Below, in pieces: positions 25,576 to 38,209 of a stretch of DNA of 64,000 nucleotides. The notes under the pieces are model-generated. The model was given only the letters and a program-made list of their open reading frames with translations. It did no database searches and had not been told where the DNA came from. This DNA comes from Mesorhizobium sp. (GTDB lineage: Bacteria > Pseudomonadota > Alphaproteobacteria > Rhizobiales > Rhizobiaceae). The stretch covers positions 1 through 64,000 of the forward strand of contig SAQG01000037.1 of the NCBI GenBank assembly GCA_004020315.1, read 5' to 3'. How positions within the stretch are numbered: the first letter of the stretch is position 1; every line of letters begins with the position of its first letter. A program made the translations under genes and the position numbers.

Positions 25576-25623
25576 TGGCTCCCCGGGCCGGATTCGAACC
25601 AGCGACCAACCGGTTAACAGCCG
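25576..25623 (-). repeat. Distal att copy (3' 48 bp of tRNA-Asn)
   Basis: tggctccccgggccggattcgaaccagcgaccaaccggttaacagccg, identical to 38135-38182; not a complete tRNA. Confidence 0.95.
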
Positions 25624-25726
25624 CTCTTATGAGAGCCAACCAGCGCACACTACCGGTTGTTCCTTGATCGCTAAAACCCTTGTGATGCATGGCTTTCGCT
25701 TTTGCGCTTGCGCATTAGCGCACACT

Positions 25727-25773
25727 AGGGCTACATAGGCAGGACAGACAAGTTGTAGCCCTGATGTAGCCCA
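25727..25773. promoter_or_regulatory. Candidate integrase arm-type sites, left end (AGGGCTACA; TGTAGCCCT; TGTAGCCCA)
   Basis: AGGGCTACA at 25727-25735, TGTAGCCCT at 25754-25762, TGTAGCCCA at 25765-25773, immediately upstream of the integrase gene. Confidence 0.55.
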
Positions 25774-25784
25774 AGGAGGCGTGT

Positions 25785-27101
25785 ATGCCCAAGGTTCTGC
25801 TTTCGGATTTCAAGATGAAGAGCCTCAAGGCGGCCGACAAGGGCAAGCGCTATGACGTAATGGACTCCGACGTCCGAGGCTTCGGCGTCCGCGTGAATGA
25901 CAAATGCGAGCGGGTGTTTATCTTCTACAGCCGCTTTCCCGGCAGCCCAGCGCCGCAGCGCAGAAGCATCGGCGAATACCCAGCAATGACGCTGGAGCAA
26001 GCGCGGAAGAAGGCGTCCGCCTGGCGCGACCTGATCAAGAACGGGATAGATCCCAAGGAACAGGAAGAGGAGGCCCGCCAGAAGGCGGAAGCCGACAAAC
26101 GCGAGAAGGACAAGGGAGCGGCCGAGCGGCGCGCCAGACAATTCGAGCGCGTCTTGGTGCGTTTCATCCGGGCTCGTAAGCGGGATGGCATTCGAAAGTG
26201 GAGGGAAGACCGCAACGACTTCAAGCGCGAATGTCTGCCGGTCTGGCGGGGGAAGGACGTCGGGGCGATCCGCAATCCCGACATCATGGCCGTCCTCGAA
26301 AAGATCAACGACCGCGGCGCCACCCGGCAGGCGCTGAATATGGCGCAAAAGATCGGCACATTCTTCAACTGGTGCGTGGATGACGAACTGATAGACGCCT
26401 CACCCTTCCGCGCCAAAAAAGTCAGAACGGCGATCGGCGAGAAGTCGTCACGAAAACGCGTCCTGACCGACACCGAGATCCGAACGCTGTGGAAGGTGAC
26501 AGACGGCACGGCCAAAGGCGTGGGCGCTGTTGAGGCGGCGGTCTATCGGCTGCTGCTTCTGACCGGGCAACGCCTCAATGACATCGCTCGGGCCTCATGG
26601 TCGGAAATCGATCTCGAAAAGAAGGTTCTGACTATCCCAGCGGCGCGGTTTAAGTCAGACCGCGACCACGCTGTTCCTCTTACCGATGACGCGGTGGAAA
26701 TCATCAAAGGTCTGCCGCGTTTTGGCAAAAAGAACGACAGTTGGCTTTGTTCGCTCGACGGCGAGAAGCCGGTGACCATCGGCCACAAGGTTAAGCTGCG
26801 GGTTGTTGCCGCCATGCTCGCGGCGATGCGGGAAGGAGACCCCGAGGCGCAGTTGCCGGCATGGGTCAACCACGACATCCGCCGAACGGTTCGCACCCGG
26901 TTGTCCGAGCTCGATGTAATGGACGAGGTAGCCGAGGCCGTCATCGGGCATGTGCCTACAGCGCTGGTCAGAACCTACAACCAGTCGGAACGGCTCAAGG
27001 TCAAGCGGGACGCCCTGGCACGCTGGGAGGGCGCGCTGAATGCCATCGTTGGGCGTAAGCAGGCTGATAACGTGATCTCGCTGACGGGGAGGGCATCGTG
27101 A
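25785..27101 (+). CDS. int: Tyrosine-type site-specific integrase (DUF4102 + phage integrase)
   Basis: N-terminal MKSLKAADKGKRYDVMDSDVRGFGVRV...RRSIGEYPAMTLEQARKKA; catalytic LLLLTGQRLNDIARASWSEID, VNHDIRRTVRTRL, AVIGHVPTALVRTYNQ. Confidence 0.95.
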   Translation: MPKVLLSDFKMKSLKAADKGKRYDVMDSDVRGFGVRVNDKCERVFIFYSRFPGSPAPQRRSIGEYPAMTLEQARKKASAWRDLIKNGIDPKEQEEEARQKAEADKREKDKGAAERRARQFERVLVRFIRARKRDGIRKWREDRNDFKRECLPVWRGKDVGAIRNPDIMAVLEKINDRGATRQALNMAQKIGTFFNWCVDDELIDASPFRAKKVRTAIGEKSSRKRVLTDTEIRTLWKVTDGTAKGVGAVEAAVYRLLLLTGQRLNDIARASWSEIDLEKKVLTIPAARFKSDRDHAVPLTDDAVEIIKGLPRFGKKNDSWLCSLDGEKPVTIGHKVKLRVVAAMLAAMREGDPEAQLPAWVNHDIRRTVRTRLSELDVMDEVAEAVIGHVPTALVRTYNQSERLKVKRDALARWEGALNAIVGRKQADNVISLTGRAS

Positions 27102-27619
27102 GCTTTATCACCTTCAACGAGGCTGTGACGCGCGTTCGGGCTCGCCTGAATGTGCCTAATCCCGATGACGTACTGTGGGAGGCCGTCCGCGACCGGCGCA
27201 TCAAAGCAGGCTTTCCGGGTGATCGCGACGACGAAGATTCGGCAGCCGACGCATGGACGGATCATCACCTCAACACGCGCGCGGCCCACATGACGAAGGC
27301 TGACCGCAATGCCCACACCAAGGTCGATCTCGATAGCCTGATGGCCTGGCTCGATTCATTCTTTGCGCCGGCAAAAGCCGCCCCTCAAACATTCACCACG
27401 GGGCTACCAGGGTCGCCCGAGAAAGGCCGCGCCGAGATACTGCGGGAGTTCGAGCGTCGGAAGGTGTCTGGCGAGACACTGCCGGTGCTGGCCGCCGAGG
27501 TGAGGGCGATCTTGAATTGGTACGGGCAGCGCTATCCAGACAGGTCGTGTCCTAAGCCGGCATCGACAGAGAACCTGCTCCGGAGCCTGCATCGAGAGGC
27601 CACAAAACGGGGCATATAA
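27098..27619 (+). CDS. Hypothetical MGE protein
   Basis: 173-aa ORF overlapping integrase stop (gtgA-type junction); no family recognised. Confidence 0.6.
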   Translation: MSFITFNEAVTRVRARLNVPNPDDVLWEAVRDRRIKAGFPGDRDDEDSAADAWTDHHLNTRAAHMTKADRNAHTKVDLDSLMAWLDSFFAPAKAAPQTFTTGLPGSPEKGRAEILREFERRKVSGETLPVLAAEVRAILNWYGQRYPDRSCPKPASTENLLRSLHREATKRGI

Positions 27620-27700
27620 TTATCGTTTTGTGCCGAGTTTTTGTGGCTCGGCGGATTGGCGACTTTGGAGTGGTCTACACACCACACAAGGGCCAACACC

Positions 27701-27895
27701 ATGCCTCTTATCCCCCTCAATGACCTGCCCACCAAAGGCATCACGTACAGCCGCAACTACATCGATCGGCTGATCAAGGAAGATCGCTTTCCGAAGCCGG
27801 TCTTTCTCTCGCCCCGCCGGCGCGCCTTCCTCGAATCTGAAATTGACGCCTGGATCAAGGCCCGCGTCGACCAGCGGGACGAGGTGGCTGCATGA
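27701..27895 (+). CDS. AlpA-like HTH regulator / excisionase
   Basis: MPLIPLNDLPTKGITYSRNYIDRLIKEDRFPKPVFLSPRRRAFLESEIDAWIKARVDQRD, classic AlpA layout. Confidence 0.85.
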   Translation: MPLIPLNDLPTKGITYSRNYIDRLIKEDRFPKPVFLSPRRRAFLESEIDAWIKARVDQRDEVAA

Positions 27896-28074
27896 GCTTT
27901 GCCCCGTCTCCGGAAATGATCGACGCGGTTGTTGAGTGGCGCCAGCGTCGCCCCGACGAGCGGGTAAGGCGCGCGCTTGTGCCGCTGTTGCGCGACCGAT
28001 TCGGAATCGGCCCGGCTGAAGCAGTCGAGGTCATCCGCCAGTGCCACGCTGGAGGCGCCGATGCGACTCTCTGA
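27892..28074 (+). CDS. Small hypothetical MGE protein (60 aa)
   Basis: ATGA overlap with AlpA-like gene: MSFAPSPEMIDAVVEWRQRRPDERVRRALVPLLRDRFGIGPAEAVEVIRQCHAGGADATL. Confidence 0.55.
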   Translation: MSFAPSPEMIDAVVEWRQRRPDERVRRALVPLLRDRFGIGPAEAVEVIRQCHAGGADATL

Positions 28075-28267
28075 AAGACGAAAGCCGGCCGCGTATCTGG
28101 CGCGAACCGGCCTTCAGGAAATGTCACGCTTGGCGGCTGATGACGTTTTGGAAATTAACTGTAATCCGGTTTATTTTCAAGCAAAACGATTGCAGTCCCG
28201 GTTTGACATGTCGTGGCCGCTGGCCCGTGTGGTGGCCGATCTTGCCTACGGGCGGGCGCCCGCATGA
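28061..28267 (+). CDS. Small hypothetical MGE protein (68 aa)
   Basis: MRLSERRKPAAYLARTGLQEMSRLAADDVLEINCNPVYFQAKRLQSRFDMSWPLARVVADLAYGRAPA; overlaps neighbours. Confidence 0.5.
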   Translation: MRLSERRKPAAYLARTGLQEMSRLAADDVLEINCNPVYFQAKRLQSRFDMSWPLARVVADLAYGRAPA

Positions 28268-28512
28268 ATGAACCGGTTCCTGGCCCTGTTATCGCCGCTG
28301 TCCGCGTTGCTCGCACCTGCCTGCTCGACGCGCAATTCCGTCTGGATGACCACGGCTACCATTGTCGGCTGCTCGACGGGCTTCAAGACGGCGCCGCAGC
28401 CCTCCTGGCTGAATGGGCGGGCAGGGATAGGCCGAACGTTGCGCCTGCCGTGCCCCTCTACTTCACCGAGGCCGCGCAACAGTATCGCCGGGCGGCAAGG
28501 AGAAGCTACTGA
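28264..28512 (+). CDS. Small hypothetical MGE protein (82 aa)
   Basis: MNEPVPGPVIAAVRVARTCLLDAQFRLDDHGYHCRLLDGLQDGAAALLAEWAG...; ATGA overlap upstream. Confidence 0.5.
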   Translation: MNEPVPGPVIAAVRVARTCLLDAQFRLDDHGYHCRLLDGLQDGAAALLAEWAGRDRPNVAPAVPLYFTEAAQQYRRAARRSY

Positions 28513-29573
28513 TGGATCATCCTTACCGCCGCGTAGACTATGACGGCAGATCGGCGAGCCGGCCCGTGCTGCACCTACTCAGCTATGCCGAGATGGAAGC
28601 AATGCCGGAACCGGAATGGCTGGTTGAGGGGTTAATCCAGAAGCGCAGCACAGCGTTGATGTTCGGCAAGTCGAACTCGTTTAAGTCGTTCTTGGCGATC
28701 GACATCGGCCTTTCCATCGATACCGGCATAGATTGGCACGGCAACGCAGTGAGCCCTGGTGGCGTCCTCTTTGTCGCAACCGAAGGCGCCAACGGTGTCG
28801 GCAGGCTTCGCATCCCGGCTTGGTATCAGCACCACAACGTTTCTGAGGAAGACCGCCGGGCATTTCTCTATCCGCAGGAAATCTGCCTGGACGCAGCCGA
28901 CGACGTGACGGCCTTGATTGCGGCCATGAGCATCCGGGGAAACTTCGCTCTCGTTGTCATCGACATCTTCGGCGGCTCAATGAAAGGATCTGAGATCGAA
29001 GACAAGACAGCGCGGGCATGGGTGCACGGCATCCAGCGCATTCTCCGCGAAACCGGGGCATCCGTCCTCGTGGTCGCTCATACCGGCTGGCAAGACGACA
29101 GCAGGGCAAGAATGCACACGCATTTCTGGGGCAGCTTCGACAGCCGCGTACGCATGGAGGGCGACAAGGACGCGCTGACGGGCACGCTGACCGTCGAACG
29201 CCACAAGGATGCCGACAGCAACGGCTCATGGGGCTTCAGGATGACACAGGCCGGCGGCAGCCTCGTTCCCGAGTTGGACGAGAACGTGAAGGCTTCGAAG
29301 GTCCGCAAGTTGTCACCGCAGCAGCGCACCGGCCTGGATGCCCTGGACGATGCCATCGTTGCCAATGGTGTTCGGAAGTTCGGGCAGGAATGGCCACCCT
29401 GCAACGTCGTGCAAATCGATCACTGGCGAACCCACTGCGACAAACACGGAGTGTCAGAAAGCAGCAAGGCGGATTCACAGAAGAAAGCTTTCCAGCGGGT
29501 GCGAGCTTCATTGCAGGAGCGCGGTCTCATTCGCTTCTACGATGGCTTCGTCTGGCGGTGCTTCGATGATTAG
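28512..29573 (+). CDS. AAA_25/RepA-like ATPase (MGE replication helicase-like)
   Basis: ALMFGKSNSFKSFLAIDIGLSIDTG (atypical Walker A GKSNSFKS), GGVLFVATEGANGVGRLRIPAW, ALVVIDIFGGSMKGSEIEDKTARAWVHGIQRILRETGASVLVVAHTG. Confidence 0.85.
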   Translation: MDHPYRRVDYDGRSASRPVLHLLSYAEMEAMPEPEWLVEGLIQKRSTALMFGKSNSFKSFLAIDIGLSIDTGIDWHGNAVSPGGVLFVATEGANGVGRLRIPAWYQHHNVSEEDRRAFLYPQEICLDAADDVTALIAAMSIRGNFALVVIDIFGGSMKGSEIEDKTARAWVHGIQRILRETGASVLVVAHTGWQDDSRARMHTHFWGSFDSRVRMEGDKDALTGTLTVERHKDADSNGSWGFRMTQAGGSLVPELDENVKASKVRKLSPQQRTGLDALDDAIVANGVRKFGQEWPPCNVVQIDHWRTHCDKHGVSESSKADSQKKAFQRVRASLQERGLIRFYDGFVWRCFDD

Positions 29574-29582
29574 GAGATCGGC

Positions 29583-29694
29583 TGTCCGGGACGGGACACG
29601 GGACACCCTTATAGGGGTGTGTCCCTGTCTGTCCCGCCTGTCCGTACACGGGACCACCAGGGGACATGTCCCGTTTTGTCCCGTCTGTCCCGGC
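29583..29694. repeat. Cluster of ten GGGAC/GTCCC motifs incl. perfect palindrome GGGACATGTCCC (29661-29672)
   Basis: Five GGGAC and five GTCCC cores in ~112 bp directly after the RepA-like gene. Confidence 0.9.
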
Positions 29695-29787
29695 AAAATG
29701 GGTGATCATTCAAGGGCTGAAAATGGCCCCTGATATGCCTGCGAGGCCATTCGTTTTTTCTCCGAAGCGGCAGGTCACAGAAATCAG

Positions 29788-29908
29788 CGCACTCTAGCGC
29801 AAACCGGGTAACAACCGGTTGATCTTTGAGCCTGAAAGCCTTGTAAATCAACGGTTTTGGCCGGATACTAGTTGCGAGTGATTTGCGCAGGGCTACATCA
29901 GGGCTACA
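29788..29908. repeat. Internal att-like segment, paralogous to the left-end segment 25650-25735
   Basis: gcgcactcta...accggttgatctttgagcctgaaagccttgtaaatcaacgg vs gcgcacacta.ccggttgttccttgatcgctaaaacccttgtgatgcatgg; anticodon-arm-like core (29800-29818) and two AGGGCTACA motifs (29889-29897, 29900-29908). Confidence 0.55.
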
Positions 29909-29914
29909 GAAAGC

Positions 29915-30550
29915 ATGGATATGCATATCGAAAGCAGGCCGAAAGCCACCAAGAAGGCTCCAGCTAGAAGCCGCGTCACGAACGGTTCAAAGCTTGGCAC
30001 TGACATGGACGGCAGGACGATCTGGGCGCGCCGTCTCAGCGACTTGATTGACCTTTACAGCAGCGACGTTGGCCCGGCCGAAACCATCAGTCAGATGAAG
30101 CGTTCGCTCATCCGCCGCGCTGCCACGCTGACGGTTGAACTTGAGCGAGCAGAGGCCGGCTTTGCCAGGCTAGGGCAGGCCGATGCTGATGCCCTCAACG
30201 CTTACCAGACCACGGCCAACAGCCTTCGGCGCCTCATTGAGAGCCTGAGCCTCAAAGCCTCTGTGAAGGACGCGGCAGAGGTGCAGCGCACCATCGAAGG
30301 CACTCGCATATGCGAAGCCGTGGTGGATGGCTTTGACCTCAGCATGCACGCCGTTGGCGTCGGTCGCGACAGGGCAATGCTTGAAGTGGCCCGTCGCATC
30401 GCCTTCGCAGTTGCACGAGCCAAGGAGACCGGCGAGCCGATACCGGAGAGCATCGCCAATCTAGCGGTTGAACTGAGGATGGCCGACTTCGCTGGCGAGG
30501 GTCCGCCCGTCGAGCAGGACAACGTCGTGCAGGATAAGGATCTCCTCTGA
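29915..30550 (+). CDS. Hypothetical MGE protein (211 aa)
   Basis: First gene of a tightly packed + strand operon. Confidence 0.65.
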   Translation: MDMHIESRPKATKKAPARSRVTNGSKLGTDMDGRTIWARRLSDLIDLYSSDVGPAETISQMKRSLIRRAATLTVELERAEAGFARLGQADADALNAYQTTANSLRRLIESLSLKASVKDAAEVQRTIEGTRICEAVVDGFDLSMHAVGVGRDRAMLEVARRIAFAVARAKETGEPIPESIANLAVELRMADFAGEGPPVEQDNVVQDKDLL

Positions 30551-31122
30551 TGGACTTCATGGAACGACGCGCGACGGTCGAGGGCCGGCTGACCACACTG
30601 CGGCAGGCCAGAGGCGTTGCGATGCTCGACGGCGCCCGGTTCGATGCAAGGGAACTGACCGCACTGGAGAGTGAGCTTGACGCCCTCAATGAGGCCGAAG
30701 GTGAGAACACGCGCCGACAGCGCCAGGAAGCCGCGCGCGCCGAACAGGAACGTCTCGCAAATCTGCGCAAGACCCTGACCGTTGTGGAGGAAAACCGCCT
30801 TGAGGCCGTCGACCGTGCCGAGAAGGCAGCCCGCGACCTCTGCGACGCCTTGAACGAGGTTCGCGCCCGCAGCGCCGATGGAACGCGGCTCTTACGCGCC
30901 CTTGGTGTGCGACCGGCTGTGCTGCTCGATGTCTTCGAAACTGAATTCCGCATGAGCTTGCGTTTGGCCGCGGCAATCAAGCCCCTGGTCGGTCTCGGCC
31001 GGCGCTTCGGGCAGATCACCTTCCCTGAAGGCCGCAGCCCCTACGACAAGCCCTGGCGGGCTGAAGAACAGGCACTCGCAAACCCCGACATTTCCCGCGC
31101 TTTGAAAGGGCCAGCTGCGTGA
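30550..31122 (+). CDS. Hypothetical coiled-coil protein (190 aa)
   Basis: Overlaps preceding stop by 1 nt; Glu/Arg/Ala-rich helical sequence. Confidence 0.6.
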   Translation: MDFMERRATVEGRLTTLRQARGVAMLDGARFDARELTALESELDALNEAEGENTRRQRQEAARAEQERLANLRKTLTVVEENRLEAVDRAEKAARDLCDALNEVRARSADGTRLLRALGVRPAVLLDVFETEFRMSLRLAAAIKPLVGLGRRFGQITFPEGRSPYDKPWRAEEQALANPDISRALKGPAA

Positions 31123-31493
31123 CGACAGTTCCATGCAATGGCTGCACCGCCTGCTGCAGAGATGGCTTCATCCGACTGCGGCCAGAGCTAGGAGATGACC
31201 CCGCCCGCTACCTCACGCGTGAAGCTACCTATGGAGGTGAGCGGGTTCATGTTCTTCAGCGCAATGACGATGGCTCATGCATCTATCTCAACAGCAAGGG
31301 ATGCCAGATCCACGGCAATGCGCCCTCGGTCTGTCGATCTTTCGATTGCCGGGATCTCTTTTCCAAATCCAACCGCGACGAACGACGACAGCAAATCAAG
31401 CAGCGTGGCGCCAGTGTCCGAGCGATTTTCAACGCAGGCAGAGTCCGCGTGTCGCCATCCGCAAATCCAATCCCGAAAGGAACATCGAAATGA
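31119..31493 (+). CDS. YkgJ-like cysteine cluster (Fe-S/zinc) protein
   Basis: CNGCTACCRDGFIRL...GSCIYLNSKGCQIHGNAPSVCRSFDC. Confidence 0.8.
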   Translation: MTTVPCNGCTACCRDGFIRLRPELGDDPARYLTREATYGGERVHVLQRNDDGSCIYLNSKGCQIHGNAPSVCRSFDCRDLFSKSNRDERRQQIKQRGASVRAIFNAGRVRVSPSANPIPKGTSK

Positions 31494-31978
31494 CCAAGGC
31501 AATTGACCCAGCTTCCTTGAAATCTGCCGATCGGCAAACGCCGGAGGTCGACCCCGCCCGCGTGACGCTGCAGCACGGTGGGCAGTTGTGGCGCGAATAC
31601 ATGGTGCGCGTTCCGGCTGATTTCGTGGCGGATGACCTCAAGACCCCTTCGGTTTGGCGCAAGGTGCAGGCGGGCAGCCGGAACGCTCTCCGAAAGTTCG
31701 ACCGTGTTTTCGTGGTCAGCTACGACGAATCCTGGGTTGCAGAGGCGATCGTCGCCAGCGCTGATTCCAAGGGGGTGGTGCTGGCAAAGCCGCGCGTGAC
31801 GACCATGCCGGCGCGCTATGACGCCTTGTTCCAGGACGAGCTCTATCGAGTGGCATGGAACGGCTTCGGCTACGTGGTGGAGCGCAAGGCAGATGGCCAT
31901 GCGATGACCCAGGCCACAGCGAATCCCGAACTTGCGACGCGGCTGCTGGTCCAGCTTTACCCGGCGAGGGCAAGCTGA
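31490..31978 (+). CDS. Hypothetical phage/MGE protein (162 aa)
   Basis: ATGA overlap with upstream gene; MTKAIDPASLKSADRQTPEVDPARVTLQHGGQLWREYMVRVPADFVADDL... Confidence 0.65.
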   Translation: MTKAIDPASLKSADRQTPEVDPARVTLQHGGQLWREYMVRVPADFVADDLKTPSVWRKVQAGSRNALRKFDRVFVVSYDESWVAEAIVASADSKGVVLAKPRVTTMPARYDALFQDELYRVAWNGFGYVVERKADGHAMTQATANPELATRLLVQLYPARAS

Positions 31979-32718
31979 TGAGCAATGAACTTACGGTTTC
32001 AGAGAATTCTGGCGCGGCCGCTGCGACTGGCCCTGCGACAGATGGCCTTGCGGGTGACGGTGGGCGGGCGGGTTTTGCCTCCTTGTCCGTCAACCCCACC
32101 CGCAAGGCAGAAATTGAGCGGATCATGAATGAGGATTTCGACCTCTACGAGCGATCCGGCCTGAACAAGGAATACCTCGCCCTGCTCGAAGCAGAGCAGT
32201 TCGAACTGGATCCTGATTCGATGCCGGCGACACGTCCGCTGCCGGCCGATGTGTCGCGCTCCGAGATGTGCAGTTCCGAAGCCGGCCGACGCCTCGTCAA
32301 GGATTGGGAGCAGTCTGGCGGCTTCAAGGTGCACCTGGCCCATGTGCAGAACGATGTCGGCGAAATCGTCCGATCGCTCGGCAGCGTGCGCGAACAGCGC
32401 GTGTTCATGGCGAAATTCGACAGGGATATACCTGAGCCGGCGCGTTATGCCGTCTATGACGAGATCGCGGCAGGCAGGGGGCTCTATGTGGCCCCGGCGA
32501 GTTCGGCAGAGGTCAAACTGTTCGCATCGACGCCGGCCGGTCGCACACTGATGGAGGAATGGGGAAGCGTCGCGGCCGAACGTGTTGCGATGCTTCGCAG
32601 CCGTGCGGCACGCATGACAGCCAACATGAGCGAGGACGAAGCGGACGATTTCTGGACATGGTTCGACAACCTCGAACCCGGTCCCGTCGCAGCCATTTTC
32701 CGAAAACTGGCGGGGTAA
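31978..32718 (+). CDS. Hypothetical phage/MGE protein (246 aa)
   Basis: TGATG overlap; MSNELTVSENSGAAAATG...NPTRKAEIERIMNEDFDLYERSGLNKEYLALLEAE. Confidence 0.65.
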   Translation: MSNELTVSENSGAAAATGPATDGLAGDGGRAGFASLSVNPTRKAEIERIMNEDFDLYERSGLNKEYLALLEAEQFELDPDSMPATRPLPADVSRSEMCSSEAGRRLVKDWEQSGGFKVHLAHVQNDVGEIVRSLGSVREQRVFMAKFDRDIPEPARYAVYDEIAAGRGLYVAPASSAEVKLFASTPAGRTLMEEWGSVAAERVAMLRSRAARMTANMSEDEADDFWTWFDNLEPGPVAAIFRKLAG

Positions 32719-32720
32719 GG

Positions 32721-33218
32721 ATGACCTACACGTTTTTCACAGAGGGTCACTGCATGGGCGGCTTCGTCCCGACCGGCGCCCAGTTGGAAGCGGACCCGAC
32801 GCCGGAGATTGAGCCGGGCCAGTTGGTTGCTGTGGTCCTGAAAGAAACAGGGCCGATGCGAGGCCTGGCCCAATCTCTGCACGGAAATAGCTGGCTGGGG
32901 GTCGTGAAGATGTTCCTCGGTACGACCACAACCCGAGCCGGTCGCAAAGCCTACATGCTGGGACAACTTGAACCACCGATCGTGCTTGCCGTGGAAGAAG
33001 CCCACATGGCTGCGATGCACCTGATCGTCGGCGCTAAAGAAACCCCTTGGACGCTTGAAAACACCGACGAGCAGGACGCCAACCTGGAGGCCGCGCTCGA
33101 CCTGATGTCGCCTTGGATGTGTGGAGGCGCAACCCAGCCGATCGGCCCAAATTGGCGGCCTGTGGACGTTGAAGCGGTCGTGGAAGCGGCAAAGCTATTG
33201 GAGAATATCGATGCATAA
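32721..33218 (+). CDS. Hypothetical protein (165 aa)
   Basis: MTYTFFTEGHCMGGFVPTGAQLEADPTPEIEPGQLVAVVLKETGPMRG... Confidence 0.6.
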   Translation: MTYTFFTEGHCMGGFVPTGAQLEADPTPEIEPGQLVAVVLKETGPMRGLAQSLHGNSWLGVVKMFLGTTTTRAGRKAYMLGQLEPPIVLAVEEAHMAAMHLIVGAKETPWTLENTDEQDANLEAALDLMSPWMCGGATQPIGPNWRPVDVEAVVEAAKLLENIDA

Positions 33219-33540
33219 ATTCCACTGCGGACTTATCGAAACCGCCGCCGGCCCGGCCCTCGGGGCAATCGCTGACCTTGGCGAGCTTGCGCTGAAGGCG
33301 CGCGATGCTGGCCTGAGCGATGAAGAGCAGGTGAAGTTTTCCGATCTGTTCAACTTTGTGACGCAGAACCTCCCGTACGCCAATCTCTACTATGTCCGCC
33401 CGACCTTGGATTTTCTGTTCCTGAACTCAATGCGGGAAGTCGCTTCACCGGGTGCTTACCGGCGGCAAGAGAGCCGCCGCCGCAAGCAATACGGTCAACA
33501 AAGCGTCGTGAAGCCTCTCGACCCATTCGGGGCCTTCTGA
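33211..33540 (+). CDS. Small phage-like protein (109 aa)
   Basis: YYVRPTLDFLFLNSMREVASPGAYRRQESRRRKQYGQ, a tail motif I associate with podovirus-like prophage proteins. Confidence 0.55.
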   Translation: MHKFHCGLIETAAGPALGAIADLGELALKARDAGLSDEEQVKFSDLFNFVTQNLPYANLYYVRPTLDFLFLNSMREVASPGAYRRQESRRRKQYGQQSVVKPLDPFGAF

Positions 33541-34706
33541 TGGCCTCAATTCAAGTTGAAATCAATGATGGCCTGTCATCCTCAACGGCCATCAAAGGGC
33601 CGTGCAGCGTCGCCACAACGGCAAACATCACGCTTTCCGGTGAGCAGACCGTTGATGGCGTTGCTGTGGCCACCAGTGATCGCGTGCTGGTCAAGAATCA
33701 GACTTCGGCGTCAGAAAACGGAATCTATGTCGCCGATACCGGCACCTGGCGCAGGTCGAAGGATTTCAACAAGACGCGGGATGTTCGCAAGGGAACGATG
33801 GTCGTTGTCGCCGGCGGTACGCTTGGTTCCGGATTGTGGCAGATCACAACGGCTGACCCGATCTCTGTCGGGACGACGAATATTGCCTTCCAGCTGGTAA
33901 ACCCGGATTCTTCGACCTTCGTTACCCTGGCCGGCACGCAGACGCTTGAAAACAAGACGTTGACCAGCCCGACGATCAATACCCCGGCGCTCAACAATCC
34001 GACTCTGATACTCAAGCAGAGCGCCACGCCGACGCCGACCGCGGAAGGCGACTTGCAGTGGGACACTGACGACAACGTCCTGGTCGCTGGCGATGGCGCC
34101 GCCACAAAGCTTTTCGTTCCAATCCCGGCCAGCACTGCGGCCGGCGATATCGAGTATTTCACCGGAGCCAAAGTCAAGGCTAGGCTTGCCAAAGGCACCG
34201 CGGGCCAAACACTGCGCATGAATTCCGGCGCCACAGCACCTGAATGGGTCAGTATCACCGGTGCGCCAGATGCTGTCCTCGAAGATCAGAAGGCGTCCGC
34301 CACAGAAGGCGGCACTTTTACCTCCGGGGCTTGGCGCACGCGTGATCTGAATACAGAAGTGCGAGACCCTTCGTCGCTCGTCTCGATCGCCGCGAACGAG
34401 TTCACCCCGACAGTGGCGGGATGGGTGGAATGGACGGCGCCTGCAAGCAACGTCGGGCAGCACAAAACCAGGCTATTCAACGTTACCGATGCCACAGTGG
34501 CAGGGGTTGGCTCGTCGGAGCAGAGCGCCGGGAGTGCCGGTACGGCAACGAGGTCAGTCGGCGGCGCCCCTGTCGTTGCCGGGAAAGCCTACCGCATCGA
34601 ACACCAATGCAGCAGCACGGCAGCCACGCTTGGCTTGGGTCGGGCGGCAGGCTTCGCCAGCACGGTTGAAGTCTATACCCGCGTCCAGTTCTGGAGGACG
34701 GCATGA
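33540..34706 (+). CDS. Phage tail fibre/adhesin-like protein
   Basis: VATTANITLSGEQTVDGVAVATSDRVLVKNQTSASENGIYVADTGTWRRSKDF, repetitive beta-rich sequence and C-terminal jelly-roll-like domain. Confidence 0.75.
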   Translation: MASIQVEINDGLSSSTAIKGPCSVATTANITLSGEQTVDGVAVATSDRVLVKNQTSASENGIYVADTGTWRRSKDFNKTRDVRKGTMVVVAGGTLGSGLWQITTADPISVGTTNIAFQLVNPDSSTFVTLAGTQTLENKTLTSPTINTPALNNPTLILKQSATPTPTAEGDLQWDTDDNVLVAGDGAATKLFVPIPASTAAGDIEYFTGAKVKARLAKGTAGQTLRMNSGATAPEWVSITGAPDAVLEDQKASATEGGTFTSGAWRTRDLNTEVRDPSSLVSIAANEFTPTVAGWVEWTAPASNVGQHKTRLFNVTDATVAGVGSSEQSAGSAGTATRSVGGAPVVAGKAYRIEHQCSSTAATLGLGRAAGFASTVEVYTRVQFWRTA

Positions 34707-34734
34707 AATACGCCCGCATATGTTGGTTTAGGGC

Positions 34735-35088
34735 TTATACCCCGCCAGAAGCACGGCGATTCACAATTCGAGTGATCGCGGCTTCCTCCACTCGCTTGTC
34801 TACGATGCGGTTGATGTCTTGCCACGTGGCGGGCCGGTAAACCCTTGAAATAACGTCTGCGACCTCAGATCGCTGACGGGCACAGGAAGCCTTGGCTGCG
34901 AGGGCTAAGTAGTAAGGATCTTCAGGCTGCCGCGCGAGCTCATCCGCTCTGGCAACAACACATTTGGCATACGGGCCGGCCGCCTCCCATAACTTGTCAG
35001 CTTTGGCATCTGCCTCTTGAGTGGGTGTTTGGCATCCCGCCAGGGCAAAGCACATGGCGATGGTTGCGGCAAACTTCTGCATAAACAA
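34735..35088 (-). CDS. Small putative lipoprotein
   Basis: MFMQKFAATIAMCFALAGCQTPT (lipobox LAGC). Confidence 0.65.
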   Translation of the reverse strand: MFMQKFAATIAMCFALAGCQTPTQEADAKADKLWEAAGPYAKCVVARADELARQPEDPYYLALAAKASCARQRSEVADVISRVYRPATWQDINRIVDKRVEEAAITRIVNRRASGGV

Positions 35089-35118
35089 TTCCCCCCCATT
35101 CGGGGGATCATGCCTTGC

Positions 35119-35427
35119 TTAGTCCACCATGTCACGCAGCGGCTTCCTGCGCTTAGGCGGCCGGTACTTCTCGACCAGCCTAACCTTGTCGGTGTCGACC
35201 GTCACAAGCGGTCCCATGGCGATTGTGACCCTGCCGCTTTCCTCGTCTATGCGCGTAACCTCGCCTAGCAGCTCGATCTGCTGGCCCTTCTTCACCTTCG
35301 TATGGTCGATGATCGAATGCGGGAAGTTGTAGCTCGGGATAGAAACGCTGACGAGATCCTCAGTGACCCGCCTCCGGACGGTGGCCGTGATCGCCACCAG
35401 ATCTCCAATCCCAATTCCCCGCGCCAT
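35119..35427 (-). CDS. Hypothetical protein (102 aa)
   Basis: MARGIGIGDLVAITATVRRRVTEDLVSVSIPSYNFPHSIIDHTKVKKGQQIELLGEVTRIDEESGRVTIAMGPLVTVDTDKVRLVE. Confidence 0.6.
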   Translation of the reverse strand: MARGIGIGDLVAITATVRRRVTEDLVSVSIPSYNFPHSIIDHTKVKKGQQIELLGEVTRIDEESGRVTIAMGPLVTVDTDKVRLVEKYRPPKRRKPLRDMVD

Positions 35428-35498
35428 TCCATGAGTCTGGGGCGGGCGGCATTTTAATCAAGATGTCGCTAATATGCAGGCGCGGTCACGGTTGTCGG

Positions 35499-35732
35499 TC
35501 ATTTCCTCAATCTGACGCCTGGGCCTCCGTCGACCAACTCGCCGTCCGCCAAGAAGACGACGCCCGCGGCCTCAAGGGCGAGACAGAGCACCTGCAGCGT
35601 TGCGCTTCGCGGTTCCGATCCCCCGCCTTCAAACACCCGGATAGTAGCGACACCGATCGCCGCCGCGTCGGCTAGCTGCTGCTGCGACCAGCCAATTAGC
35701 GCTCGGGCGGCACGGCACTGTTCACGCGTCAT
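35499..35732 (-). CDS. XRE-family HTH regulator
   Basis: MTREQCRAARALIGWSQQQLADAAAIGVATIRVFEGGGSEPRSATLQVLCLALEAAGVVF. Confidence 0.88.
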   Translation of the reverse strand: MTREQCRAARALIGWSQQQLADAAAIGVATIRVFEGGGSEPRSATLQVLCLALEAAGVVFLADGELVDGGPGVRLRK

Positions 35733-35852
35733 TAATCATCCCCATTATTTTCAGTAGAACTATATGAAATATATTGACACAAAGTGAATGACGCAGCAAC
35801 TTCGCTAGCGCCGCCAACAATCTCGTTGTCGATCCCAAAGGGGGAAATATCA

Positions 35853-36590
35853 ATGCCGAACACACATGTTCGGGCTGCCGCCGAAGGCATGCCCGATGTC
35901 AACCGCCGCCGCCTTCTCAACCTGACCGGGGCGGGGCTCGCTCTCGCCGCCACCGCTGCCACCGTGCGCAATGTCTCGGCCGCGCCGATCGACGCCCCTG
36001 CCGAGCATCCCGACGCCGCGCTGTTCCAGCTCGAACAAGAAATGGAGGAAGCCCACGCTCGGATGGAAAGGGCGTCAAAGGCCAACACCAGAGTCAGCAG
36101 AAAAATTGAAGCCCTGCTGCCACCAAGGCCGATTCATCCACGCGACTGGGAAAAACAAAAGTCGAAAATGCCGGCTCATCTGAAGCAACAATGGGATGAT
36201 GGGCTTAAAAACGTGCTCTTCGCTGATATAGCCAAGAGGGACTGGCAGTCGGAACCGGTACGCGCATGGTTCGAGGCGATCGATAGAGAAAAAGCGCAGG
36301 TCCAAGCCTCGTGGGACGAATGGAAAGCCCTGAAAGACGAGCGGTACCGTGAGCGCAACTATGACGCCCTGGAAGAGGCATTCAACACATGCGTCAGCGA
36401 GGTTGACGAGTTCACCAAGCGTATCTGCTCAATCCCGGCCCACACCTTCGAGGGCATGGCGGTGAAGCTGCGCGCCCATGTCAGGTCTGGGGGCGAGATC
36501 GAGAAAGAGGAAATGTATCTGGACGATTACGCCCTGGCCTCGATCGCCGCCGATATCAGGCGCCTTGCAACCGCCGGCGGTGCCGCATGA
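35853..36590 (+). CDS. Twin-arginine-signal-like protein of unknown function
   Basis: VNRRRLLNLTGAGLALAATAATVRNVSAAP then long Glu/Lys/Trp-rich helical region. Confidence 0.65.
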   Translation: MPNTHVRAAAEGMPDVNRRRLLNLTGAGLALAATAATVRNVSAAPIDAPAEHPDAALFQLEQEMEEAHARMERASKANTRVSRKIEALLPPRPIHPRDWEKQKSKMPAHLKQQWDDGLKNVLFADIAKRDWQSEPVRAWFEAIDREKAQVQASWDEWKALKDERYRERNYDALEEAFNTCVSEVDEFTKRICSIPAHTFEGMAVKLRAHVRSGGEIEKEEMYLDDYALASIAADIRRLATAGGAA

Positions 36591-36889
36591 ACGCGCTTAC
36601 TTCCGCCCCGACCGTTGAACCGTTCTGCGTCTCTGACACGTTCATCACCGGCGCTGGCCCGCTCCAGTTCATGGGCGACAATCTCAGGCTGACGCTGCAT
36701 GTTTTGCAACGCTCGACCTATGACGGCGGCACGGAAAACGCCGTGGTTTCAAAGATCGTTGGAAGTCGCGCCGACATGCTGAGAATCGCGGCCGCGATTC
36801 TCAGTGCTTGCAACTCCCGATCAACACCAGCGGATAAAGTGGTGGAAAACTTCATGGAGTTTCTTGAGGGGCCTACGGGACGGCACTGA
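36587..36889 (+). CDS. Hypothetical protein (100 aa)
   Basis: ATGA overlap with preceding CDS. Confidence 0.5.
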   Translation: MNALTSAPTVEPFCVSDTFITGAGPLQFMGDNLRLTLHVLQRSTYDGGTENAVVSKIVGSRADMLRIAAAILSACNSRSTPADKVVENFMEFLEGPTGRH

Positions 36890-36916
36890 AACCGACCCTG
36901 GACGGGGGGAACTGCT

Positions 36917-36945
36917 AAGCCCGCTGCCTAACGGTGGCGGGCTTT
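36917..36945 (+). terminator. Putative intrinsic terminator
   Basis: AAGCCCGCtgcctaacggtgGCGGGCTTtc. Confidence 0.6.
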
Positions 36946-37117
36946 CGCCTACCTGTCCCAGCACGCGTTCTTTAATAGGTGGCTCTCCGAGCGCCTTTCC
37001 TCCTTGTCCGGGAATGGCGACTGAAATTCGCGGATGACGCGCTGCTCCGTCTCTTTTGACATCTGGAGACGAGAGTCCTGGGGCTGCCCTGCAGTTTCCT
37101 TTTCCGGACGTAGCTGG

Positions 37118-37969
37118 TCAGACATGGTCGACCTCTCTGTTCAGGTGTTCAGGATAGTAGTGCTTCCGCTTTATCCAGCGAAAATTCTCGAATGGCGTAA
37201 TGGTTGCAACATCAATGTCGCCGGACACGTACTCCGGCACGGCGCGAAAGCGAAAGACCTTTTTCGTCAGATCTGCAAGAAATTCGGTCAAGTCGATTGC
37301 GTCCTGTATTGGCATCACAGGTGACAACAGTGGGAGATACAACTCGGGCGCGACGCTCTTGTATAGGTCTGGGTGGCTGTCGGGTGTCACTCCGTTGTCC
37401 ATCAGTATTTTCTCAAGCTTCCATCCAAATCCGTTAATAAGCCGTTGGATCGGATCGGGTTGACCGCCGTAGTAGATGCCGACCTGGCCGGTACCAGCTC
37501 GTAGCTCAGGCTCCTCGATCTTGCCCTGAAACACCCGCAGACGCCATAACTCTGGAAACATTTCGCCAGCTGAGTAGCCACCGATCCAGAGCTCGAAACC
37601 GCCATCAAAGCCTTCGATCTTCCCAAACGCCTCCGAGTACTTCTCCTCGAGAAAGAATTTGTGCGCAGCGGCGACAACCTCTTTCATGGTGTACTTTCCA
37701 GGCAAAGCTAGGTCACCACCTTCCGCGATCATCCTTCGGAACTGCTTCGCTAGCATAGCGATCGAAGCTTGCCCGAAATTGCCTAGGCCGCTGGTCATGG
37801 CCATGATCGGAAATTCACGATGCAACTGGAACAGTTTATTCCCATGCCGATAGACTTGTTGGATCGGAACGCCGTCGCCGTCTTTCTCGCCCAGCCCGTC
37901 AAACGACGTCGCGCTGTCCGCTGCAAAAACCATGCATTCGTTTACTTTGACGCAAACGCAAACCGTCAT
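37118..37969 (-). CDS. Proteasome beta-subunit-like (T1-type) Ntn-hydrolase
   Basis: M|TVCVCVKVNECMVFAADSATS: Thr directly after Met, Asp17 in AADS; NKLFQL...IMAMTSGLGNFGQASIAMLAKQF like the KI...MAISG..AD region; ELWIGGYSAGEMFPELWRL and GTGQVGIYYGGQPDPIQRLI like later proteasome strands. Strong RBS AAAGGAGGGGG upstream. Confidence 0.65.
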   Translation of the reverse strand: MTVCVCVKVNECMVFAADSATSFDGLGEKDGDGVPIQQVYRHGNKLFQLHREFPIMAMTSGLGNFGQASIAMLAKQFRRMIAEGGDLALPGKYTMKEVVAAAHKFFLEEKYSEAFGKIEGFDGGFELWIGGYSAGEMFPELWRLRVFQGKIEEPELRAGTGQVGIYYGGQPDPIQRLINGFGWKLEKILMDNGVTPDSHPDLYKSVAPELYLPLLSPVMPIQDAIDLTEFLADLTKKVFRFRAVPEYVSGDIDVATITPFENFRWIKRKHYYPEHLNREVDHV

Positions 37970-38055
37970 GATCGATCCCCCTCCTTTCAGAAAGGCTCCG
38001 ATTCCGTCGATGTGTCAACTTTGCGGCTACAACAGTGCAGGGGGAGAATCGCATC

Positions 38056-38076
38056 TGTAGCCCCCTATGTAGCCCT
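38056..38076. promoter_or_regulatory. Candidate integrase arm-type sites, right end (TGTAGCCCC; TGTAGCCCT)
   Basis: ctgtagccccctatgtagccctga, same motif as left end and internal site. Confidence 0.5.
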
Positions 38077-38134
38077 GAAGCTAGTTCGCCAGATTGGCGA
38101 AGGCACCGAATGTCAGCTAAGTCTTTGAAATTGT

Positions 38135-38209
38135 TGGCTCCCCGGGCCGGATTCGAACCAGCGACCAACCGGTTAACAGCCGGTTGCTCTACCACTGAGC
38201 TACCGGGGA
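38135..38209 (-). tRNA. tRNA-Asn(GTT), intact, CCA encoded
   Basis: Reverse complement TCCCCGGTAGCTCAGTGGTAGAGCAACCGGCTGTTAACCGGTTGGTCGCTGGTTCGAATCCGGCCCGGGGAGCCA folds as a cloverleaf. Confidence 0.97.

What the first reader, a model, noticed from the sequence alone, without database searches (positions are those of the whole stretch)
37118..37969. Stand-alone proteasome-type Ntn-hydrolase encoded on a mobile element
After Met removal the protein starts Thr1-Val-Cys-Val-Cys-Val-Lys with Asp17 in AADS, closely matching 20S beta (TT..V..K..GVV.AADS.AT). The Lys region (NKLFQL) is offset by a small insertion, followed by a SGL..F motif and later strands (IGGYSAGE.FPELWRL, GTGQVGIYYGGQPDPIQRLI). 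At 283 aa it is longer than HslV, and no HslU, AAA unfoldase or alpha subunit lies nearby. Possible roles: self-compartmentalised protease like Anbu, host-protein degrader, anti-defence or exclusion factor.
Basis: partly seen in the sequence, partly recalled or inferred. Interest (0 to 1): 0.75.

Follow-up and report, generated by a model that had tools for sequence, protein, structure and literature searches.

The report
Proteasome-like enzyme with small partner
A mobile DNA element carries a gene for an enzyme built like one proteasome subunit, coupled to a tiny partner gene; in distant relatives the same pair is followed by known toxin genes, which suggests that this uncharacterised enzyme family helps control toxin-antitoxin-like modules.

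Summary
It encodes a proteasome-type Ntn hydrolase. In 86 non-redundant relatives Thr/Ser1, Asp17, the catalytic Lys and the oxyanion Gly are invariant, and 14 have exactly Thr1-Asp17-Lys33. The AlphaFold2 model (pLDDT 93) matches 20S beta subunits and Anbu. The gene is cargo next to attR of a 12.6-kb integrative element in tRNA-Asn (perfect 48-nt att repeats), absent from 60 relatives. The family is not new: it fits the PMI proteasome homologues of Fuchs, Alva and Lupas (2021), by anatomy PMI-2. Those authors found no informative gene context. I did. Outside one solo clade, 53 of 71 relatives have a coupled small ORF right downstream (0/14 in the solo clade, 5.6% of control genes). In the window this is a 58-aa ORF at 36949-37125(-), under purifying selection. 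In 24 of 86 relatives the next gene is a PIN, RelE/ParE or MazF toxin; Fic/Doc follows two more divergent members. Best reading, inferred: the Ntn enzyme acts on the small partner, which serves as antitoxin where a toxin follows. The window has enzyme and partner but no toxin. Function is untested.

The parts
37118..37969 (-). Proteasome-type Ntn hydrolase (P0001, 283 aa); Met1 then catalytic Thr, Asp18, Lys45, Gly61 (Thr1/Asp17/Lys44/Gly60 after Met removal)
36949..37125 (-). 58-aa partner ORF S (MSDQLRPEKE...NACWDR), start codon overlaps the stop of the Ntn gene (ATGTCTGA)
   Evidence: same overlap in L004, L007, L083, L084; dN/dS 0.05 against L007
37977..37987 (-). Shine-Dalgarno AAAGGAGGGGG in front of the Ntn gene
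36917..36944 (.). GC-rich inverted repeat AAGCCCGC...GCGGGCTT between S and the convergent ORF 36587-36889; terminator-like by eye, not reported by the tool's consensus scan
   Evidence: sequence; scan negative
38135..38182 (.). attR, 48 nt, identical to attL; 3' half of tRNA-Asn (38135-38209, minus)
25576..25623 (.). attL, 48 nt
25785..27101 (+). tyrosine integrase of the element
25576..38182 (.). 12.6-kb integrative element with phage-like genes (AAA_25 primase-like 28512-29573, tail-fibre-like 33540-34706, weak spanin-like 34735-35088); no capsid or terminase found among the ORFs scanned
   Evidence: absent from 60 relatives

Best explanation
The gene encodes a proteasome-type N-terminal-threonine hydrolase of the PMI group (anatomy of PMI-2). 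It forms a two-gene unit with a small downstream protein, S, carried as att-proximal cargo of a tRNA-Asn integrative element. Met aminopeptidase exposes Thr1 (inferred). The enzyme then acts on S, by limited proteolysis or turnover (inferred). In many relatives S carries an antitoxin-like C-terminal tail and is followed by a PIN, RelE/ParE, MazF or Fic/Doc toxin, so there the enzyme would set the antitoxin level and release the toxin on a cue. In the window only enzyme and S are present, so S itself, or what it binds, would be the output. Shown: fold, catalytic residues, coupling to S, toxin neighbours in relatives. Inferred: that S is the substrate, and the control logic.
For: Catalytic residues invariant in 86/86. 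Confident Ntn model and PDB match. Coupled S with SD: 53/71 outside the solo clade against 30/536 control ORFs. S in the window's clade under purifying selection, dN/dS 0.05. Pfam-confirmed toxins as third gene: PIN, ParE, ParE_like, PemK, Fic. Of 18 toxin homologues among 1288 ORFs in 89 loci, 16 lie 199-448 nt after the Ntn stop and 2 elsewhere. Toxin type changes repeatedly on the tree. S looks two-part: L008 (with PIN) and L184 (without) share 20/40 of the N-terminal residues but 5/24 of the tail. Distant 400-aa homologues in phages and plasmids also carry a 55-58 aa ORF directly downstream.
Against: All toxin-linked loci lie in one half of the tree; the window is in the toxin-free half. 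A clade of 14 (Roseomonas, Noviherbaspirillum and kin) has no S at all. S has no significant shared motif across clades. AF2 of a read-through Ntn-S chain gave no confident docking of S (pLDDT 34-63; uninformative). No activity data exist.
Confidence: 0.45

Rival explanations
1. The Ntn protease is itself the toxic or defence effector and S is its inhibitor (immunity protein); the additional toxin in some loci is a second line that punishes loss of S.
For: Enzyme first and small protein second, tightly coupled; many loci, including the window, have no other toxin; att-proximal cargo position.
Against: Toxin-linked S proteins have antitoxin-like tails and the toxins need a cognate antitoxin, which S best supplies by position; the solo clade keeps the enzyme without S, so the enzyme alone is tolerated there.
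Confidence: 0.2
2. The enzyme is a connectase-like transpeptidase that joins S to another protein rather than degrading it.
For: Connectase is a proteasome homologue that works as a specific ligase (PMC8665760); a dedicated small partner fits a specific acceptor or donor.
Against: The two-helix S3/S4 insertion of connectase is absent in the model, and helices H1/H2, which connectase lacks, are present; S has no shared recognition motif.
Confidence: 0.1
3. The Ntn protein is a chaperone-like stabiliser of the antitoxin, as SecB-like chaperones are in toxin-antitoxin-chaperone modules, with proteolysis secondary.
For: Three-gene logic and two-part antitoxin resemble TAC modules (PMC5105189, PMC6377645; abstracts only); S looks two-part.
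Against: The complete catalytic set is invariant in 86/86, not expected of a pure chaperone.
Confidence: 0.1
4. A stand-alone housekeeping or anti-host protease with no functional tie to its neighbours.
For: Solo clade without S; Fuchs et al. reported no informative context (PMC8665760).
Against: S coupling about 13 times above control, and toxins almost only at the third-gene position.
Confidence: 0.1

Closest known systems
PMI proteasome homologues (PMI-2; Fuchs, Alva, Lupas 2021, PMC8665760)
   Same: Thr1/Asp17/Lys33 active site, beta fold, insertion between helices H3 and H4, broad bacterial plus euryarchaeal distribution
   Different: Their accessions were not available here, so membership rests on anatomy. 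The small partner and toxin-antitoxin context are not reported in that paper; phage occurrence is listed for PMI-4, not PMI-2
PHROG 5990-type phage proteins of 400-430 aa (anatomy of PMI-3/PMI-4)
   Same: Homologous over the whole length (hhalign probability 99.5%); also followed by a 55-58 aa ORF
   Different: About 110 extra residues after helix H2 that the window protein lacks
Anbu
   Same: Starts Met-Thr, stand-alone beta-type subunit, fold match TM 0.53
   Different: Separate gene in the same genome (L002); Anbu's C-terminal helix H5 is not evident in the model
HslV and 20S proteasome beta subunit
   Same: Fold and catalytic residues
   Different: No HslU or alpha partner in the element; longer; H3/H4 insertion at the ring-stacking face; separate hslV elsewhere in the genome (L001)
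Toxin-antitoxin-chaperone modules (SecB-like, PMC5105189)
   Same: Third gene added to a toxin-antitoxin pair, antitoxin with an extra segment
   Different: Third protein is a proteasome-type hydrolase, comes first in the operon, and occurs with several toxin folds

Membership tests
Proteasome-like Ntn hydrolases | Nucleophile Thr/Ser at position 1, Asp17, Lys33, oxyanion Gly47 | tested here: met
   86/86 relatives have Thr/Ser1, Asp17, Lys and Gly; Lys is at 33 in 14 members, shifted by a longer S3/S4 hairpin in others (44 in the window)
Proteasome-like Ntn hydrolases | Alpha-beta-beta-alpha sandwich, strands S1-S11, helices H1-H4 | tested here: met
   AF2 pLDDT 93.2; Foldseek top hits are 20S beta subunits
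Proteasome-like Ntn hydrolases | Peptidase activity with exposed Thr1 | not testable with these tools
   needs protein
PMI-2 (Fuchs 2021) | Insertion between H3 and H4 | tested here: met
   residues 180-220 with two helices between H3 172-179 and H4 221-241
PMI-2 (Fuchs 2021) | No long insertion after H1/H2 (that marks PMI-3/-4) and none of the PMI-6 kind between S3 and S4 | tested here: met
   only residues 116-124 after H2; S3/S4 is an extended hairpin
PMI-2 (Fuchs 2021) | Clusters with the published PMI-2 sequences | not testable with these tools
HslV | HslU partner | tested here: not met
   no HslU among the ORFs of the element; rest of the window not scanned by profile
Connectase | Lacks H1/H2, two-helix insertion at S3/S4 | tested here: not met
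   H1 70-81 and H2 95-115 present, S3/S4 is a hairpin
Type II toxin-antitoxin module | Toxin gene adjacent to a small antitoxin gene | tested here: not met
   window has S but no toxin ORF behind it; met in 24 of 86 relatives

The most novel reading that the evidence does not exclude
PMI proteasome homologues are the control enzymes of a new three-part toxin-antitoxin-protease module: a Thr1 hydrolase, a two-part antitoxin whose N-terminal half answers to it, and interchangeable toxins. Mobile elements also carry the enzyme-partner pair alone, as here.
Probability: 0.35. Interest if true: 0.82.

Novelty: new variant of a known kind. Interest (0 to 1): 0.62.

Why it matters
The PMI families have had no known function or context since their description in 2021 (PMC8665760). 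A coupled partner gene and recurrent toxins give a testable functional lead: a proteasome-type enzyme dedicated to one small protein, possibly an antitoxin. It would add a proteasome-fold enzyme to the known controllers of toxin-antitoxin systems (Lon, Clp, SecB-like chaperones).

Tried and rejected
Single-sequence Pfam, NCBIfam and PDB searches: nothing; only relatives and structure resolved it. PADLOC: no defence family. Shared motif in S by EM against shuffles: not convincing. Docking of S by a read-through AF2 chain (L042, in-frame stop then ATG): S low confidence, uninformative. Toxin remnants in toxin-less sister loci L067 and L184: none found. General att/tRNA adjacency of the gene in relatives: only the window shows it clearly. 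S homologues in viral contigs away from the Ntn gene: none found (few patterns). Kept apart: the Methanobacteriota clade at 103-124 bits, which sits beside a DNA glycosylase and has no S.

Full report
What is there. The ORF lies on the minus strand at 37118-37969 and has a strong Shine-Dalgarno in front of its ATG. Its stop overlaps the start of a second ORF of 58 codons at 36949-37125. Both lie inside an integrative element bounded by perfect 48-nt repeats at 25576-25623 and 38135-38182, the 3' half of tRNA-Asn. A tyrosine integrase sits just inside attL. The Ntn gene is the last gene before attR. The element carries tail-fibre-like and primase-like genes; no capsid or terminase gene was recognised among the ORFs scanned. 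Among 61 related genomes only this one has the gene. None of the other 60 carries a full match to the element's integrase end; most show the 48-nt tRNA sequence, usually as a single copy.

What it is. The protein alone matches no Pfam, NCBIfam or PDB family; PHROG 5990, of unknown function, matches its C-terminal part. Searches gave 78 loci in genomes and 10, then 23, in viral contigs, from Proteobacteria, Actinobacteria, Acidobacteria, Gemmatimonadetes, Chloroflexi, Firmicutes, methanogens and an Asgard archaeon. Six of 49 aligned relatives match the Pfam proteasome family and the profile finds 20S beta chains. AlphaFold2 on the alignment gives pLDDT 93.2 and pTM 0.89 with the Ntn strand and helix order. 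Foldseek puts 20S beta subunits first and Anbu among the hits. In 86 non-redundant relatives Thr/Ser1 (77 Thr, 9 Ser), Asp17, Lys and Gly are invariant, and 14 members have exactly Thr1-Asp17-Lys33.

Known family. Fuchs, Alva and Lupas (PMC8665760) described 22 new proteasome homologues. Their PMI group, from PMI-2 to PMI-6, carries an insertion between helices 3 and 4, which the window protein has (residues 180-220). PMI-3 and PMI-4 also have a long insertion after helix 2, which it lacks. By anatomy it is PMI-2. The 400-aa phage relatives have the helix-2 insertion (hhalign) and resemble PMI-3/-4. Sequence-level membership could not be tested. The host genome also encodes HslV (L001) and Anbu (L002).

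New context. Fuchs et al. reported no informative gene neighbourhood. Here, outside a clade of 14 Roseomonas and Noviherbaspirillum-type loci, 53 of 71 non-redundant loci have an SD-led ORF of 40-140 codons starting within 30 nt of the Ntn stop. The figure is 0 of 14 in that clade and 30 of 536 among other long ORFs of the same loci. In the window's clade this small gene is conserved with dN/dS 0.05 between the window and L007. In 24 of 86 loci the next gene is a toxin: 11 PIN, 10 RelE/ParE and 3 MazF. More divergent members add RelE (L174), MazF (L186) and Fic/Doc (L065, L185). In the first 89 loci, homologues of these toxins occur 16 times at 199-448 nt after the Ntn stop and twice elsewhere. 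Toxin labels need at least 10 changes on the tree, so toxins were gained, lost or swapped repeatedly, all within one half of the tree. The small protein looks two-part: where a toxin is missing in a close sister (L184 against L008), the N-terminal half is kept and the tail is not. This rests on one clear pair, with a second (L066/L067) less clear. The distant phage and plasmid forms also carry a 55-58 aa ORF directly behind the enzyme gene.

Mechanism. The simplest reading is an enzyme dedicated to its partner. With a toxin present, S would be the antitoxin and the enzyme would decide its level. Without a toxin, as in the window, the output is unknown. Rivals are an effector protease with S as inhibitor, a connectase-like ligase, and a chaperone-like role. 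The solo clade and the lack of a common S motif are the main weaknesses, and the read-through AF2 test did not help. A literature search found no report linking proteasome homologues with toxin-antitoxin genes; the library holds only open papers.

Limits. Gene calls are mechanical, and S starts were chosen by ATG, SD and distance. Toxins are named by Pfam only, and the weakest (two RelE-like calls near E 0.002) lie below the curated cut-off. Several relatives come from metagenome-assembled genomes. The extension from toxin-linked relatives to the window is an inference across the deepest, weakly supported split of the midpoint-rooted tree.

Noticed in passing
L154-L170 (Methanobacteriota genomes): A divergent PMI-like gene (about 310-330 aa open frame) in about 17 genomes; in nearly all the next gene is an 8-oxoguanine/AlkA-type DNA glycosylase homologue (one tested: OGG_N plus HhH-GPD). 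A stable synteny different from the mobile family.
   Followed up: partly
L002 (own genome, contig C48): The host also encodes Anbu (MTYCVGLKIDRGLVF), and HslV at L001: three proteasome-type enzymes in one genome.
   Followed up: partly
G1811 C42, G1808 C63, G1802 C1: Relatives with a second copy of the 48-nt tRNA-Asn att sequence (about 15-74 kb away), probably other elements in the same site.
   Followed up: no
L115 (Streptococcus satellite phage Javan103, 9274-10653): A satellite phage carries the 401-aa PMI form plus a 55-aa ORF as its last genes at the end of the record opposite the integrase, an att-proximal cargo position like the window's.
   Followed up: partly
L015 2946 (Helarchaeota): The Asgard relative lacks ATG/GTG/TTG at the expected start (ATC before ACT); true start or sequence error unclear.
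   Followed up: no
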